A stretch of DNA of 64,000 nucleotides from Heliocybe sulcata (Eukaryota > Basidiomycota > Agaricomycetes > Gloeophyllales > Gloeophyllaceae), in NCBI GenBank assembly GCA_004369045.1, contig ML213503.1, forward strand, positions 1,253,343 to 1,317,342, read 5' to 3'. The notes below the pieces were generated by a model. The model saw only the letters and a list, made by a program, of their open reading frames with translations. It made no database searches and was not told the DNA's origin. Position 1 is the stretch's first letter. Each line of letters starts with the position of its first letter. A program made the position numbers and the translations under genes. This document shows, in pieces, positions 38,025-45,473 of the stretch.

Positions 38025-38650
38025 TTGCCTCACCCCTTGCTTCCTTCTCGGTGTATATAGTTACGGACAGGATTTTAATGCACTTACATACGAACCAGAC
38101 CTGCACAGATATTCCTGGATACTCGCAACGAGACCGCAAGTGAGTTCATTTACCGGTGTTTTGTGGCTTGAACCATTTTAGAACTGTGCCTGGCGCTCAA
38201 TGGCTGAGCGCTAAGGTTGTCGGATCCTCTGGACAATGCAACGGCAGGACCTCTCGGACAGCCACAGTAATTCCATTAGTCAAGGGTAGGATCCGGGGAA
38301 CAGGTTTACATCTCGAGTTGTGGTGATTGTGTGGGGTTGGTCACGACATGCTAACTCTGACAGTTCTGAGCCGAACTTGTCCAAGTAGACGCCTATTGCA
38401 GACGCACTGTGCCTGGCGCCTACAGGGTGATCATCACGATAACGGGCCATGAAGCGGCTGTCTCGAGTGTTATATTGTTGTGATCAACAAAGGATCCTCG
38501 ACTGGTGGTACACGGCACCCATCCGTCATACTCAGGTATGTGCTACATATTTTCGAGCTATTGCAGTAGGTGTCGAGGCTAACACCGTTGCTAACATTTC
38601 TTGGGTAAAGGTATCGCGGGTGAACAACCCTCAGCATCCTACAGGGTACC
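38025..38650. other. Intergenic region before the Cys-repeat gene
   Basis: A 626-base gap with no supported gene. A short phrase, ACTGTGCCTGGCGC, occurs twice in it (about 38185 and 38406). It must hold the Cys-repeat gene promoter. Confidence 0.4.
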
Positions 38651-40999
38651 ATGAGCTACAACAGTGGTGCAGTTCCTGGAGCGCCACCGCTAATCCCGCC
38701 TAGGCCCTCAGTGCCGCCGAGACCTCAACCCACCACTCATCGACCTCGTCCTCCAGTTCCTCCCCGACCAGATCTGCCTCCGAGACCTTCACTCCCTCCG
38801 CGAACACCCGCGCCACCTCTCTCCGCCCGTCCTCAGTTACCTGTGGCAGATCTGAATAGTCTCTCGGATCAGTTCTCTTCACTCAGTACGGGCCTGTCTG
38901 ACAGCCCACCGCCATACTCACCAAGCCACCCTGCAGCCCAGACATCGTTTCGACCGCCTCCTAGTCGTACTGCAACTTCTGAACCAGAGGATCCTGTTTC
39001 ATATCCTGAAGTGCCAGATGCTTCGTCAGAAGTATCTGCAGATAGGAGAAGGCCGAGCCCTCGTCCTTACGCTACGGTATCAAATAGCAGTACTGAGGGC
39101 ACCGAGGAGAGGACCGGTCCTACTATGCCCTTGCCAAGTCCCGTTGCACCCGAATTACCAGGGAATTCTACTGGCCAGCGAAGTCCAAGGTCTTATTCGG
39201 TCCCTCCTTCCAATGAGCGTGGCTCAAGGGGCTTAGTGCATGGAGTGCTTGAGCACGGTGCAGCGTCGCAGCATCCCAATGGCTCATTGGACCGTGTCCC
39301 GAGATGCGCCAAAGGGGGGTACGTCCACTGGTGCACCTGGTATCACGACCCCTTGGTGCCCGGCTTTGATATCTGCGAAGAGTGTTATAGACTTCATATC
39401 CAGCCCACTGAGCTCGGCCGCTATTTTCGACTCCAGAGCGACAAGGACCCCAGCACTCAGACCTGCTGTGACTTTAATAGAGCGCGGATGAAGCAGGTCT
39501 GGGCAGAGGCTGTTCGAGCGCGCAATATCGACACTGCTCGTGCTTATATGCGCCGCCGATTAGCCATCCCTCCATGCAGGGGTCTTGATGGGATTTCGGT
39601 TGGCCCGGAGACAATGAATTTGAAGTGGTATACGATGAGGAATAGCGAAATTCAAGGGTGGATTGCGTGCGAGGCCTGCTATGAAGATGTTCTCTGCGCG
39701 TCGCCTCTGATATCCCACTTCAAGCCAGACATGACCCAGTACCCCGCCGGGAACAAGTTCATCTGCGACATGGCGTATCCGTTCTTCAAGAATACTTTCG
39801 ACGAATTCTCGAAATCCGGGGACTGGCGCGAGTTCATTAACCTGTCGAATATGAGGACGAAGATCCAACCTTGTCCAGGAGACCAATTGGTACAAGCTAC
39901 GTCTATAAGATGGATGAGACCGAAATCCTATATCCAGGACGTGTATGTCTGCTCTGCGTGCTATTTCGATATCATCCTCTGCACGCCTTGGAGGGATCAC
40001 TTCGAGGCTGTCGAGACCTCCTTCATGAGAGACGTCGGAAAGCAGTGGAAGTGCTGTCTGGCTGTCCAAAAGATGAGATTTAGCTGGGACATCATGATGG
40101 ACGAGAAGGCCCCCTTCGATACCTGGTGGCACGCAGCGCGAGTCCTCGCGACTACGCCGGCCTGCAAGAATGAAGGCGTAGAGAACTACGGGTGGTACGT
40201 CCTCGACGGGTGTGAGAATTTTGATATATGCCCAAGCTGCTACCACTGCTACGTCCCGATGTTTCCTGCATACGCGCGGCGTTTCCGTCTGCAGCACTAT
40301 CCTCCGGGGACAGTGCGGGCTTGCGACTTTGCGCCAGGTGCGCCTCGAGCTGGGGCATTCCTCGTTAAATTTGCGCAGGCCGTCGAATGCAAGGATTTCT
40401 CGATCTTCAGGGACTACGTCAGGGAGAAAGCCCCCTTGCCTCCGTGTCCCCGGTCGAATCCCACAGCCAACTTCCGCTGGTGGGGCATCCCGAGCGGGTT
40501 CACTTGCTGCGAAGAGTGCTTCAAGGACGTTGTCGAGGGCTCTGCTCTTGCCTCTCAGGTCACCGTGCGCGGTGAGCAGACCTCACAGCAGTTCACGTGC
40601 GGACTGTACTCGCCGAGGATGCGCGGTATCTGGGCAGAGGCGTGCAAGCAGAACGACATCTCGCGCTTCGTCACGGCGGCGCGGGAGAGGATGCAGGTGT
40701 ACTGGGCGACGGTGCCGCGCTGCCAGATGATCCTGGAGACGATGAAGATGCGCATGAGCGTGCGCAATACGAATCTGCTGGCGGCGACGATGGTCATGGG
40801 CGCCGATGGGGTCGTGGGCGCGGCGTCGGGGGGTAGTCATACGCATTACGGGAACGCGGCTGTTGGGTATGGGTGGAACACGATGGCGGGGGCTCAAGCG
40901 GCGGTGCAGAGCCAGGCGGCGATGGGTATGAACGTCATGCCTGGAAATGAGATGGTGGAAGTGGCGCAGTTGGAAGCTTTGTGGAAGCAGGTCGAATGA
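38651..40999 (+). CDS. Conserved-looking fungal protein with five tandem Cys-rich repeats, unknown function
   Basis: An intronless gene coding 782 residues. Residues 1-215 are disordered and Pro-rich, with PPRP/PPRPS-type SH3-ligand-like repeats. From about residue 217 to 690 there are five units of about 95 residues. Each has an entry Pro-Cys (PPCRG, QPCPG, PACKN, PPCPR), a Trp, a core (F/W/Y)xxCxxC(Y/F) (FDICEECY, WIACEACY, VYVCSACY, FDICPSCY, FTCCEECF), a later Cys, and a helix containing W or F. The Cys pattern suggests zinc or disulphide binding, but I cannot say which. There is no signal peptide or membrane segment, so a cytosolic or nuclear site is likely. The Gly/Ala/Met-rich tail ends LEALWKQVE. 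Function is unknown. Long single-exon structure is unusual among its intron-rich neighbours. Confidence 0.85.
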   Translation: MSYNSGAVPGAPPLIPPRPSVPPRPQPTTHRPRPPVPPRPDLPPRPSLPPRTPAPPLSARPQLPVADLNSLSDQFSSLSTGLSDSPPPYSPSHPAAQTSFRPPPSRTATSEPEDPVSYPEVPDASSEVSADRRRPSPRPYATVSNSSTEGTEERTGPTMPLPSPVAPELPGNSTGQRSPRSYSVPPSNERGSRGLVHGVLEHGAASQHPNGSLDRVPRCAKGGYVHWCTWYHDPLVPGFDICEECYRLHIQPTELGRYFRLQSDKDPSTQTCCDFNRARMKQVWAEAVRARNIDTARAYMRRRLAIPPCRGLDGISVGPETMNLKWYTMRNSEIQGWIACEACYEDVLCASPLISHFKPDMTQYPAGNKFICDMAYPFFKNTFDEFSKSGDWREFINLSNMRTKIQPCPGDQLVQATSIRWMRPKSYIQDVYVCSACYFDIILCTPWRDHFEAVETSFMRDVGKQWKCCLAVQKMRFSWDIMMDEKAPFDTWWHAARVLATTPACKNEGVENYGWYVLDGCENFDICPSCYHCYVPMFPAYARRFRLQHYPPGTVRACDFAPGAPRAGAFLVKFAQAVECKDFSIFRDYVREKAPLPPCPRSNPTANFRWWGIPSGFTCCEECFKDVVEGSALASQVTVRGEQTSQQFTCGLYSPRMRGIWAEACKQNDISRFVTAARERMQVYWATVPRCQMILETMKMRMSVRNTNLLAATMVMGADGVVGAASGGSHTHYGNAAVGYGWNTMAGAQAAVQSQAAMGMNVMPGNEMVEVAQLEALWKQVE

Positions 41000-41412: not shown

Positions 41413-43124
41413 CTACCCACTCGCCGCACCCTTCCCCCGCCTCGAGCTCGGCACATCCGCATCCTCCGGCGCGTCCTTGTCCACCGCCTCGCCCACGAAC
41501 GTCGGGAACCTGCAGACACAGACACGCGTCAGCCACCCACCCGCCCCGAGAGACACGAGAATGCAGACCTCGGGACGCCGTCCTTTGTGAGCTCCTGGAA
41601 GCGGTAGGTGATGAGCGCGCCGACTTTGGGCGGGCGCCGGCGCTGCGCGTCCGAGAGGCCCGAGCCGACTGCGAAGGTCTGCCGGGGGGAGGGTGAGCGG
41701 GGTAGCGGTGGGGAAGGGGAGAGGCGCACCTTTCCGGACGCCATTTTGCATTTGAGCGCGCCCGTGCTGCCTTTGTGTTTTCCCTTGCCGGGGACATAGC
41801 CCGTGACGAGCGCCTCTGCGTCGTAGAACGTCTGCCGCGGACCGATTAGCAAGGTGCATGCGTGCGTGCGTGAGTCCCGCGCACCTTGATTTTCAACAGC
41901 GAGCTGGAGCGGCTGCCGACGTAGGCGGAGCGCGGCTCGCGGAGCATGAGCCCCTCGCCGCTGCACGCCTCTACCTCTTTCAGTTTCCGGAGCACGTGTT
42001 GCCTGCTCTCCGCGCGCTCTTGGGTGACCAGGACGACTTCTTTGCACGCGTGCGTCCCGCCGGGCCCGAAGGTGGAGGTGAGGTAGGCGAGGCGCTGCTC
42101 GAAGGGCTGGGGCCCGAGGGAGGGGGCGTCGAAGACGTGGAAGGTGATGTGGGACCAGTGCGGCGAGTGGACGGTCTTGACGATGGAGACTGTGGATTGG
42201 AAGGCGCCGCGCCCGGAGAAGAGCTCGCCGTCGAGGGTGACGTTCTTGGGCAGTTCTGCGTCGGTGCGTGAGGGGGTGAGGTCTCGAGGCGGGATTTGGG
42301 GGGGCTTACTTTCGAGGAACCAGTGGGGCGGCGTGAAGGGGTTGCCGAGGCGGCTGATCATGCGTGTGCCGTCGTAGTAGGCGCGGACGCCGTCGAGCTT
42401 CTCGGACATCCACCACCCCGTTGGGTCAGGGCCTGTTTCGAGGTCCCACTTGGCCGCCAGCAGCAGCGCGGGGACGGTCTTCTTCCCCGTACTCGCAGCC
42501 TCGCCACCGTCGTCTTGTTCCCCTTCGTCGTCAGCCGCAGCCTTGGCCTTCTTACCATTCTTCTCGTCGTCGCTCCCGTTCCTCTTGCGTTTCGCAGCTG
42601 CGCCGGGTTTGGACTTGCCCTTTGAAGCGGGGGCGTGGGCGTGCGGGTTCTTGAGCTTCAGCCGCGCCTTCTCGTAGGGCTCGCCGAGGAGCGACTTGAG
42701 GTGCTTGCAGGTGCGGGCGTTGACGGGGGCGCTGCCCTTTGTCTTGGAGTCACACGGGGTAGGGGCACAGAGAATAGGGAAACATACTTGATTTCTCCAG
42801 GCCTGTAGTATATAGGAATATAGACAGCGCTAAGGACGGTCGTACTTCTATTGGTCAATACGACGTACCGGGCATGAGCTGGGGGAGAGTGAGGATGCGG
42901 GGCTGTGTGGGGAGGGGGGACGTACCAGTAGTAATGGTCCCAGGTCCTCTTTACTTTGTACGTCGAAGTGCTAGCGCACGGCAGCCATCTCAGACTTGGC
43001 TAGAGTCAATGGGAAGCAAGTCGCACCTGGTCATGGACTTTACTTCGACCTCCTCTCCGTCCTTGAGCACCTGCTTGGGCTTGATGCCGTTGATTTCAGC
43101 GAGCTCGTCGTGGTCGGAGGACAT
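41413..43124 (-). CDS. SWIM zinc finger-ATP-dependent DNA ligase fusion
   Basis: Exon 1 (43124-43027), exon 2 (42970-42926), a 10-base microexon (42878-42869) and a 15-base exon (42802-42788) join to a larger exon from 42742. Spliced, they give TSTSTYKVKRTWDHYYCSCP then AWRNQTKGSAPVNARTCKHL: the SWIM zinc-binding pattern CxC...CxH. A Lys-rich linker leads to the ligase core: EKLDGVRAYYDG (motif I, Lys for AMP), GELFSGRGAFQ, FHVFDAP, GEGLMLREP and LLKIK. The OB-fold follows (TGYVPGKGKHKGSTGALKCK), ending at 41413. Family knowledge: KxDG enzymes seal nicks using ATP. The SWIM domain probably binds DNA or protein. The size is small for a replicative ligase, so repair is likelier. It is divergent from the permease. 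The microexon join was read by eye but restores the zinc pattern exactly. Confidence 0.85.
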
Positions 43125-43604
43125 AGTGAACACGAGGACTCGGGGCAGAGCGCAGCGGGCTTTTTATATGCGGACGCGGTGAGTCGGGTGATGCGCCAGA
43201 CAGGGGCGGGAGGCGGTGAGTGAGGGTGAGTCACTGGCAGGGCGGTCGGCGGGGAGTCATAGATAGATGGAAGGGGTCGCATCCTATACGAACCTATTCA
43301 TCTGTCTGTCACTCCTCTCATTGCAGAACCGGCGAACTACCGAGCAGGCTACAGAGGCGAAAAGAATAGGGTACTGTTTACGGAAGGATGGTAGCCTTGT
43401 ATGGCATTCACCCGACGCCAGGCTTCGCGATAAGAAGAGCTATTCTTAGCATGATGGCACACGGCTGTGCAGCTCGTCCATACGCACCGCGCAAAAATAG
43501 CGATCAAACGGACGCCTCTTGCGCCAGTGGATAAGGCCTGACAGCGGGGGAACAGGACATAGCTGGCGCCCCAACCGCTGACGCCTTCTCTCCTACCATT
43601 CAAC
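43125..43604. promoter_or_regulatory. Divergent promoter region, SWIM-ligase / permease
   Basis: 480 bases between the two start codons. No TATA box or known motif is clear. It is wider than most shared promoters in this window. Confidence 0.4.
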
Positions 43605-45473
43605 ATGGCCGACACTGCGTACCCCAACTATGGCGAGGACAAGGAGAAGGCCGCGAGCAGCAGCGAGGGCGGCCTGACGGAGACGCGGGTCGTGGAGAAG
43701 GCGCCCGAGGTCGCGTACACCAGGCGGTTTGGGCGGGTGGGGCGGTGGATGGCGACGTTGTTCGATGCGGGTGTCGAGGCGAGAGGTGTCGAGCGCGTGC
43801 CCGAGGACGAGCGCGAGTCCAAGAATACGTGGAACAAGTGAGTTTTGCCTGGGACAGAGGATGCACGCGCTAACGAGCCTGCTAGCCTATTGATGTGGTG
43901 GTATGTTATTGCCAACGTCCAACTCTGCGTGTGGTGACCTGATCTCATTCAGGTCTGTCAACACTGTCCTGACCACCATCCCGATCGGCGTCCTTGGCCA
44001 AGAGTTCTACACTCTGTCTTTCGCGTACGTCACCCGACCTTTACCCAGCCCCATCATACTCACCCACCTCCAGCCACGCAGTAGCCACCATCCTCTGCTT
44101 CGGCGCGCTCGGCGCCCTCGCCACCGCCTTCATCGCGACCCTAGGCCCGCAAACCGGCCTGCGCACCATGATCATCACGCGCTTCAGCTCCGGCTACGTC
44201 GGCGGCACCATCTACTCCATCCTCAACATCCTCACCCAGCTCGGCTTCTCCACCACCGCCGTCATCCTCGGCGGCCAGACCCTCGCCTCCATCCACCCCG
44301 GCACCCTCCCCCTCGTCGTCGGCATCATCATCGTCGGCCTCTGCTCCCTCATCCCCTGCTTCATCGGCTACAACATGGTCCACCTCTACGAGCGCTACGC
44401 GTGGATGCTCATCTTCCTCGTCATGCTCTTCCTCTGGGGCCTCGGCGGCAGGGCCGGCTACGACATCTCCGCGCAGAAGCCGCTCGAAGACTCGGGGCGC
44501 GCGCTCTCCGCGGACATCCTCAGCTTCGGCGGGATCGTGTTCGGCTCTTTCAGCGGTGTACGTCCTCTCCCCTCCCTCTCCGCCCTTCCCTAACACCGCA
44601 TACAGTGGGCCCCGGTAGCAGCCGACTACAACTGCCGCCTCCCCGTCACGACCCCGCCGCTCAAAGTCTTCCTCCTCACCTTCTTCGGCCTCTTCATCCC
44701 CATCTGCTTCGTCGAGATCCTCGGCGCCGCGCTCATGACCATCACCGACCCCGCGTACACCGCCGCCTTTGAGGCCGGGAGCACCGGCGGGCTGCTTGCG
44801 CAGGTGCTCAGCCCGTGGCACGGCGGCGGCAAGTTCATCCTCGTCCTCCTCGCCCTGTCCGTGGTGTAAGTCACCCCCGTCCACCAAATTCACGCAGCTT
44901 ATTGATTGATGGTATTATACACCTAGCGCAAACAACATCCCCAACACCTACTCCACCGCGCTCTCCATCATGGCCCTCGGGCGCCCCTTTGCGCTCATCC
45001 CGCGCTTCGTCTGGACGCTCCTCGCCTTCACCATCTACACCGTCGCGGGCGTCGCCGGGCGCGAGCACTTTTCCGAGATCCTCTCCAACTTCCTCAGCAT
45101 CCTCAGCTACTGGACCGCCTTTTTCATCGTCATCGTCGCCGAGGAGCATTTCATCTTCCGCAGGCGCCGGGGGTACAATTTGGACGATTATGATACGCCG
45201 AGCAGGTTGCCGCTGGGCGTGGCGGGGGTGTTGGCGGGGTGCTTTGGCGTTGCGGGCGCTGTGGTGGGCATGTCGGAGGTTTGGTATACGGGGCCTCTTG
45301 GCAGAGACGCAGGGACTCCGCTATACGGCGCAGATCTTGGGTTCGAGGTACGCTCGGTCCGTTCACCCGCGACCTTGACTCTGACTTTAATGGAACTCTA
45401 GCTCGCCGCCGCGTTCGCAGCTGTCACCTTTCTGCCCCTGCGCTACCTCGAAATCCGTCTCACGGGACGGTAG
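43605..45473 (+). CDS. NCS1-family purine-cytosine permease (Fcy2-like)
   Basis: The start at 43605 gives MADTAYPNYGEDKEKAASSS and a charged cytosolic N-terminus. A 15-base microexon (43886-43900) restores NNLLMWWSVNTV, the conserved N-x-D/L-W-W region at helix 1. Then IPIGVLGQEFYTLSF, LGALATAFIATLGPQTGLRT, MIITRFSSGYVGGTIYSILN, a block with FGSFSG then WAPVAADYNCRL, and NNIPNTYSTALSIMAL. About twelve helices are implied. The end is RYLEIRLTGR. Family knowledge: fungal Fcy2-type NCS1 symporters import cytosine, adenine, guanine and hypoxanthine with protons at the plasma membrane. The exact substrate is not known. The third positions of codons are mostly C, much more than in the neighbours, which also keeps a long antisense frame open. 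Confidence 0.92.

What the first reader, a model, noticed from the sequence alone, without database searches (positions are those of the whole stretch)
41413..43124. DNA ligase with an N-terminal SWIM zinc finger assembled across a 10-base microexon
Seen: KxDG ligase motifs and an OB-fold follow a SWIM CxC...CxH motif. The motif is only complete when a 10-base exon (42869-42878) and a 15-base exon (42788-42802) are spliced in; otherwise the Cys pair is lost. Known: SWIM domains bind DNA or proteins and ligases of this size act in repair. Inference: an unusual fungal repair ligase that annotation pipelines may miss or truncate at the N-terminus.
Basis: partly seen in the sequence, partly recalled or inferred. 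Interest (0 to 1): 0.7.

Follow-up and report, generated by a model that had tools for sequence, protein, structure and literature searches.

The report
Fungal SWIM-zinc-finger LigE DNA ligase
A fungal gene encodes a bacterial-type DNA-sealing enzyme with a zinc finger in front, and a 10-base exon carries the middle of that zinc finger; matching intron-free genes in bacteria and phages support this reading and point to an old family of likely repair ligases.

Summary
On the minus strand at 43124-41413, nine exons with eight GT-AG introns of 47-66 bases give a 424-aa protein. The 10-base exon (42878-42869) and 15-base exon (42802-42788) encode the contiguous CSCP|AWRNQ of a CxC-x15-CxH motif. 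Splicing is supported without RNA: intronless bacterial and viral genes encode the same peptide in one frame, and an unguided spliced search with a bacterial profile returns these exon borders at 44.6 bits, against at most -2.1 in 300 shuffles.

The enzyme is a Lig E-type ATP-dependent DNA ligase, and the SWIM is not a fungal oddity. Of 79 bacterial loci retrieved by the SWIM alone, 75 also carry the ligase motif in the same frame; so do 19 viral contigs. In genome samples, 43 of 295 Planctomycetota and Myxococcota genomes have a full-length match. Some relatives add WGR or BRCT domains.

Fungal Lig E and its horizontal origin are already published (PMC10665377, PMC6264785); my searches listed no description of SWIM-Lig E. 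Best reading: an accessory break-sealing ligase with a SWIM contact module, acquired horizontally. Function, zinc binding and transcripts are untested.

The parts
43027..43124 (-). Exon 1 (98 nt): N-terminal extension and start of the SWIM domain (residues 1-33 in part)
42926..42970 (-). Exon 2 (45 nt): first SWIM strands, ending in ...WDHYY and two bases of the Cys48 codon
42869..42878 (-). Exon 3, 10-nt microexon: third base of Cys48, then S-C-P
   Evidence: contiguous C-S/T-C-P in intronless homologues
42788..42802 (-). Exon 4, 15-nt exon: A-W-R-N-Q of the SWIM core
42310..42736 (-). Exon 5 (427 nt): second SWIM half (RTCKHL), basic linker, start of the adenylation domain with KLDG
41885..42255 (-). 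Exon 6 (371 nt): rest of the adenylation domain
41730..41831 (-). Exon 7 (102 nt): OB domain part
41569..41678 (-). Exon 8 (110 nt): OB domain part
41413..41509 (-). Exon 9 (97 nt): end of the OB domain, C-terminal tail, stop
42701..42927 (-). SWIM zinc-ligand core Cys48 to His68, spread over exons 2-5 (genomic span includes introns 2-4)
   Evidence: coordinates worked out by hand from the exon table
42542..42592 (-). Lysine/arginine-rich linker segment KRKRNGSDDEKNGKKAK, resembling a bipartite nuclear import signal
   Evidence: the pattern, written after seeing the fungal linker, is in 1 of 90 bacterial/viral linkers; overall K+R content (0.19) is within their range (mean 0.11, maximum 0.20); localisation is inference
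42389..42400 (-). KLDG, ligase motif I with the nucleotide-accepting lysine (motif role recalled)
41885..42421 (-). DNA_ligase_A_M (PF01068) region, residues 162-322, crossing intron 5
   Evidence: coordinates worked out by hand
41491..41792 (-). DNA_ligase_OB_2 (PF14743), residues 336-399, crossing introns 7 and 8
   Evidence: coordinates worked out by hand

Best explanation
This is a fungal gene, apparently single-copy and intact, for an accessory ATP-dependent DNA ligase of the Lig E type with an N-terminal SWIM zinc finger. Shown: open spliced frame, microexon supported by homology, conserved catalytic core, and the same two-domain protein in bacteria and viruses of bacteria. Inferred: the core takes AMP from ATP on the KLDG lysine, passes it to a 5' phosphate and seals the nick. 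The SWIM finger, tethered by a flexible basic linker, gives the extra DNA or partner contact that the bare Lig E core lacks and brings it to broken DNA. In the fungus a basic linker segment sends it to the nucleus, where it backs up the classical ligases after genotoxic stress. The gene descends by horizontal transfer from the bacterial/phage SWIM-Lig E pool. Spliceosomal introns entered later, and three of them cut the short SWIM core into 10- and 15-base exons that must be included for a full protein.
For: Spliced model with 8 GT-AG introns. Pfam adenylation and OB_2 domains over cut-off; NF006592 over cut-off; Lig E structures as best PDB relatives by sequence, and by fold for the M. xanthus relative. 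Intronless SWIM-Lig E ORFs in 11 of 80 viral loci, SWIM plus ligase motif in 75 of 79 bacterial loci and 18 of 20 viral loci of the SWIM scans. The fungal protein keeps 58 of the 62 columns invariant in 42 SWIM-Lig E proteins. SWIM against classical SWIM profiles: probability 97, score 51.9 against a maximum of 23.2 in 200 column shuffles. AlphaFold model of the M. xanthus relative: SWIM blocks at pLDDT 90-94, a disordered linker at 67-86, confident ligase core. WGR in 17 of 42 relatives at E up to 1, and over Pfam's cut-off in 5 of 8 scanned singly; BRCT over cut-off in L101 and L118. WGR and BRCT are recalled as DNA-break or repair-complex modules. Four other places in the same genome match PF01068, so this looks accessory. 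Rotifer and Mortierella Lig E rise after irradiation, and rotifer Lig E is nuclear (PMC10665377, passages and one section read).
Against: No transcript, protein or activity data. Pfam SWIM (PF04434) does not hit the fungal protein even at E 10 and hits only 3 of 42 relatives weakly, best 0.0073. The SWIM profile finds no PDB chain better than E 0.7, and the SWIM model alone has no significant PDB match. No conserved neighbour genes within the 3-kb flanks tie the bacterial genes to a repair pathway: the largest shared neighbour cluster is in 8 loci and its example looks by eye like a protein kinase. Donor not settled: the ligase-only tree leaves the fungus unresolved, the second tree joins it to one phage-like contig at 98/86 on long branches. 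No other fungal sequence could be included.
Confidence: 0.7

Rival explanations
1. The SWIM motif is a splicing artefact: CxC arises by chance when short GT-AG fragments are stitched together, and the true protein starts elsewhere.
For: No RNA evidence; a 10-base exon is at the edge of what gene finders accept (recalled).
Against: 0 of 300 shuffles reach the real score. The peptide encoded across the three exons is contiguous in intronless genes of bacteria and viruses. Skipping exon 3, or retaining intron 2 or 3, gives 57-97 aa products. Skipping exon 2 stays in frame (409 aa) but loses the first Cys and the strands before it.
Confidence: 0.02
2. Same gene, but the SWIM is a protein-interaction or structural module and the ligase serves another compartment or substrate, such as mitochondrial DNA or cytosolic nucleic acid, not nuclear break repair.
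For: SWIM domains are recalled to bind proteins as well as DNA; localisation was not tested. Gonococcal Lig E is linked to biofilm formation (PMC10799422, title and start of abstract seen in the listing), so the core is not tied to chromosome repair.
Against: A basic nuclear-signal-like linker segment in the fungal protein, a pattern found in 1 of 90 bacterial/viral linkers (pattern written after seeing the fungal one). WGR and BRCT partners in some bacterial relatives. Published nuclear, radiation-induced rotifer Lig E (PMC10665377).
Confidence: 0.2
3. The gene was inherited vertically from an ancient eukaryotic SWIM-Lig E, and bacteria or phages are not the direct source.
For: Lig E is reported in many fungi, protists and some animals (PMC6264785, PMC10665377; passages). 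The fungal row has a long branch (1.21 and 1.39) in the two trees.
Against: The family found here is bacterial and viral, but this is sampling: the collections hold no eukaryotes apart from the window's own genome.
Confidence: 0.25

Closest known systems
Lig E / PRK09125 ATP-dependent DNA ligases (8u6x from Neisseria gonorrhoeae, 4d05 from a psychrotolerant bacterium, 6gdr)
   Same: Adenylation plus OB_2 core; 45.7% identity to gonococcal Lig E over residues 147-404; NF006592 over cut-off.
   Different: Canonical Lig E is described as a bare core, often with a leader peptide (PMC6144786 abstract, PMC8455567 passages); this protein has a SWIM finger and basic linker in front.
Eukaryotic Lig E (first called LigK) of bdelloid rotifers and Mortierella
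   Same: Same core in a eukaryote, reported as horizontally acquired and radiation-induced (PMC10665377, PMC6264785; passages and one section).
   Different: Those carry PBZ zinc fingers; the word SWIM occurs in neither main text.
Leaderless Myxococcales Lig E cluster that includes a few, mainly fungal, eukaryotic sequences (PMC8455567, cluster c)
   Same: Probably overlaps with the myxobacterial SWIM-Lig E; its sequences were not compared here.
   Different: That paper used sequences of 250-370 aa, and its main text has no 'swim' or 'zinc'.
Chlorella virus-type minimal ligases
   Same: Related minimal ligase fold.
   Different: Much more distant (E 2e-10 against 2e-63 for 8u6x) and without a SWIM (recalled).
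Fungal microexons (P450 genes of Phanerochaete chrysosporium; Xlr2 of Trichoderma virens)
   Same: Exons down to 6 bp and frequent introns of 45-55 bp are reported in P. chrysosporium P450 genes (PMC1184071, passages); in Xlr2 inclusion of a microexon gives a protein with a zinc-cluster DNA-binding domain (PMC11121469, abstract and passages).
   Different: Here the microexon completes a SWIM finger of a DNA ligase; no alternative isoform is known.

Membership tests
Lig E catalytic-core family | PF01068 adenylation plus PF14743 OB domains | tested here: met
   39.8 bits (cut-off 26.2) and 102 bits (cut-off 28)
Lig E catalytic-core family | Curated equivalog model NF006592/PRK09125 | tested here: met
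   288.4 bits, cut-off 200; the ten other ligase models listed stay far below their cut-offs. The model is named only 'DNA ligase'; its link to Lig E is by the Lig E hits
Lig E catalytic-core family | Conserved catalytic residues (KLDG and further motifs) | tested here: met
   58 of 62 invariant columns kept; the four changes are G14S, W121Y, A136P, L226V (M. xanthus numbering)
Canonical minimal Lig E | No domain appended to the catalytic core | tested here: not met
   N-terminal SWIM and linker; not filed as canonical minimal Lig E
Canonical minimal Lig E | Leader (signal) peptide | not tested
   No signal-peptide predictor on hand; the N terminus is charged by eye and leads straight into the SWIM
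SWIM zinc finger | CxC-x(n)-CxH (definition recalled) | tested here: met
   C48xC50-x15-C66xH68; these four ligands are invariant in 53 homologues
SWIM zinc finger | Profile match to PF04434 above cut-off | tested here: not met
   no hit up to E 10; 3 of 42 relatives, best E 0.0073. Hence 'SWIM-like by Pfam, SWIM-related by profile-profile'
SWIM zinc finger | Profile-profile similarity to classical SWIM proteins | tested here: met
   probability 97, score 51.9, 200 shuffles at most 23.2; the 15 classical rows (PF04434 hits) were cut out by the motif, which favours the match
SWIM zinc finger | Two strands then helix around the ligands | tested here: met
   strands 20-25 and 28-31, helix 49-55 in the M. 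xanthus relative (prediction; the fungal protein was not folded)
SWIM zinc finger | Binds zinc | not testable with these tools
   needs protein
Microexon | Flanking GT-AG introns and coding continuity with homologues | tested here: met
Microexon | Inclusion in mature mRNA | not testable with these tools
   no RNA data held

The most novel reading that the evidence does not exclude
SWIM-Lig E, with optional WGR and BRCT modules, is a distinct and undescribed class of break-sensing ligase: a PARP-like sensor and a ligase in one chain, shared by predatory and budding bacteria, huge phages and fungi. In the fungus, inclusion of the 10-base exon acts as a gate, because skipping it yields only a 78-aa fragment.
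Probability: 0.2. Interest if true: 0.75.

Novelty: new variant of a known kind. Interest (0 to 1): 0.55.

Why it matters
Lig E has been studied as a bare catalytic core, often with a leader peptide. A widespread form with a built-in zinc finger, sometimes joined to WGR or BRCT, suggests an intracellular break-repair branch, and that this branch, not the leader-bearing one, entered at least one fungus. That makes testable predictions about DNA-damage tolerance in fungi. The gene is also a clean example of a domain that disappears from a protein model if a 10-base exon is missed.

Tried and rejected
Chance motif or wrong splicing: rejected. Classical LIG1/LIG3/LIG4 relative: rejected, the hits to human ligase 4 have E about 0.15 against 2e-63 for Lig E. 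Giant-virus origin: I first guessed that the large viral contigs were giant viruses, but neighbours in L076 (endolysin, phosphoesterase) and L002 (nicotinamide phosphoribosyltransferase) match phage families, so these two are treated as phages; one further L002 gene and one L006 gene gave no PHROG hit, and the other viral contigs were not checked. Conserved bacterial gene neighbourhood: none found within 3-kb flanks. Anti-phage defence: of three proteins scanned, only the WGR part of one hits a PADLOC model, E 2e-5. SWIM alone against PDB by sequence and by fold: nothing significant. A regex for WGR in the linker found none; Pfam showed that WGR is C-terminal in the five placed. Donor lineage: best BLAST scores are bacterial, the top ones Myxococcota (314 bits), but the second tree joins the fungus to L076; left open. 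Fungal orthologues: no collection on hand holds them.

Exceptions in the counts: one search kept the best 80 of 136 relatives as 79 loci, so the 75 of 79 is for those. L088, L103, L118 and L146 show no ligase motif in the SWIM frame; four of the 75 (L101, L125, L141, L142) run off the stretch held. Of the 20 viral loci, ten lie on contigs already given with a SWIM-ligase, eight are new contigs with SWIM and ligase, and two (L165, L166) show no ligase motif, their frame being short; 11 plus 8 gives 19 distinct viral contigs by contig name, besides phage record LR745208.1. L147, L169 and L171 failed the strict motif but are SWIM-ligases on inspection. L019 and L058 are identical in sequence. In one search no ORF came out for L080. 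The tree left out 8 long or odd rows and every second remaining bacterial row.

Full report
The gene. On the minus strand from 43124 to 41413, nine exons joined at eight GT-AG introns (56, 47, 66, 51, 54, 53, 51 and 59 bases) give one open frame of 424 codons and a stop. The 10-base exon (42878-42869) carries the last base of Cys48 and S-C-P; the 15-base exon (42802-42788) carries A-W-R-N-Q; the CxH half lies in exon 5. The window lies on a contig of a 31.6-Mb genome held as G000, and one PF14743 match was found in it, this gene (only best candidates are scored). Four other places in that genome match PF01068, by exon pieces, so other ligases seem present. I take the organism to be a basidiomycete from its gene structure; that is inference, no call names it.

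Is the microexon real? No RNA is held, so I used homology. The spliced protein was scanned against viral contigs: 80 loci, 79 with a ligase ORF, of which 11 have an intronless ORF carrying both the SWIM motif and the ligase. A second scan with the SWIM segment alone in bacterial genomes gave 136 relatives, of which the best were kept as 79 loci; 75 of 79 have SWIM and a ligase motif in one ORF. A 20-residue block from 78 of these loci (44 distinct) was then used as a scoring matrix for a search over GT-AG paths (introns 40-120 bases) in 43026-42737. The best path used the end of exon 2, both ends of the 10-base exon and the start of the 15-base exon, at 44.6 of 81.2 possible bits; 300 dinucleotide shuffles gave a mean of -21.9 and a maximum of -2.1. 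I regard the splice model as well supported at sequence level. Skipping the 10-base exon shifts the frame and leaves 78 residues; skipping the 15-base exon deletes five residues in frame, four of them conserved; skipping exon 2 leaves 409 residues without the first Cys; retaining intron 2 or 3 leaves 97 or 57 residues; retaining intron 4 or 5 stays open (441 and 442 residues).

What the protein is. Pfam gives DNA_ligase_A_M and DNA_ligase_OB_2 over cut-off. The curated model NF006592 (PRK09125) scores 288 bits against a cut-off of 200. The closest solved proteins are the Lig E ligases 8u6x, 4d05 and 6gdr. The fungal protein keeps 58 of 62 columns that are invariant among 42 SWIM-Lig E proteins. 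The N-terminal domain is C48xC50-x15-C66xH68. Pfam's SWIM model misses it and hits only 3 of 42 relatives weakly, but a profile of 53 such domains matches a profile of 15 classical SWIM domains with probability 97 and score 51.9, against 23.2 at most in 200 column shuffles. The classical rows were cut out by the motif, so this control is generous. An AlphaFold model of the Myxococcus xanthus relative has two strands and a helix around the ligands at pLDDT near 90, a disordered linker at 67-86 and a confident core. The SWIM model alone finds no significant PDB match. The fungal protein itself was not folded.

Distribution. SWIM-Lig E is widespread outside fungi: the 79 loci are mostly titled as Myxococcota (or Deltaproteobacteria), Planctomycetota and Verrucomicrobiota, with a few others. 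It also occurs in 19 distinct viral contigs up to 436 kb and in a 485-kb uncultured phage record. In evenly drawn genome samples, full-length matches (best E below 1e-150) occur in 5 of 149 Planctomycetota and 38 of 146 Myxococcota genomes, and all 43 start at profile positions 2-4, that is, include the SWIM; no other genome in the two tables has a best E between 1e-150 and 1e-18. The seed genomes G002 and G001 are inside those samples. Of 42 aligned members 17 match WGR and 1 BRCT at E up to 1, that BRCT just under Pfam's cut-off. Of 8 proteins scanned singly, 5 have WGR over cut-off at the C-terminus, and L101 and L118 an N-terminal BRCT over cut-off. Plain Lig E proteins served as comparison: 16 from viral contigs and three from Pseudomonadota records.

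Origin. In a ligase-only tree of 107 rows the fungus falls in a group of 90 that holds all 87 SWIM-Lig E rows (94/85), with two plain rows (one viral, one Neisseria), but is otherwise unresolved and outside the bacterial SWIM group of 70. In a second tree with the SWIM included (65 rows, 8 long or odd rows dropped and every second remaining bacterial row kept) the fungus joins viral contig L076 at 98/86. Both branches are long, and no other eukaryote is included. I conclude: member of the SWIM-Lig E group, donor open.

Literature. Lig E (first LigK) in fungi, rotifers and other eukaryotes, its horizontal origin, radiation induction and nuclear location in a rotifer are published: PMC10665377 (passages and one section read) and PMC6264785 (passages read). 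PMC8455567 (passages read) reports a leaderless Myxococcales Lig E cluster that groups with a few, mainly fungal, eukaryotic sequences. None of the three main texts contains the word SWIM. Full-text searches for SWIM with ligase terms listed no paper whose title or shown start of abstract describes this architecture; the papers listed were not opened, and the library lacks most subscription journals, so this is not proof of absence. Microexons are on record in fungi (PMC1184071 and PMC11121469; passages read).

Mechanism. Lig E is reported to bind nicked DNA without fully encircling it because it lacks extra domains or loops (PMC6144786, abstract and outline seen). A tethered SWIM is a natural extra contact. 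Some bacterial relatives add WGR or BRCT, modules that I recall as break-binding or repair-complex modules. In the fungus the linker holds KRKR...KKAK, a pattern (written after seeing it) in 1 of 90 bacterial or viral linkers, though overall K+R content is within their range. The inference is a nuclear accessory ligase recruited to breaks. Sealing activity, zinc binding, localisation and stress role are all untested.

Noticed in passing
L118:2668-3288 and L101:2671-4107 (Kofleriaceae): BRCT domain in front of the SWIM (in L101 followed by Lig E; the L118 frame stops soon after the SWIM). L084 has SWIM-Lig E followed by a BRCT just under cut-off and a WGR.
   Followed up: partly
L146:2881-3537: A SWIM joined to a Lig E OB domain with no adenylation domain: a degenerate or non-catalytic relative.
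   Followed up: partly
   Followed up: partly
L103:1-1404: The SWIM start is joined in frame to what looks by eye like an aldehyde dehydrogenase; real fusion or assembly chimera.
   Followed up: no
window 43563-44593, + strand: Divergent neighbour; frame 43973-44593 matches PF02133 cytosine/purine permease. The first ATG of the frame 43563-43841 lies about 450 bases from the ligase ATG.
   Followed up: no
window 43168-43161, - strand: TATAAAAA just under 40 bases before the ATG, implying a very short 5' leader if used.
   Followed up: no
window 38624-40999, + strand: 791-aa open frame with repeated Cys-rich segments (by eye) and no Pfam hit at E 0.01.
   Followed up: no
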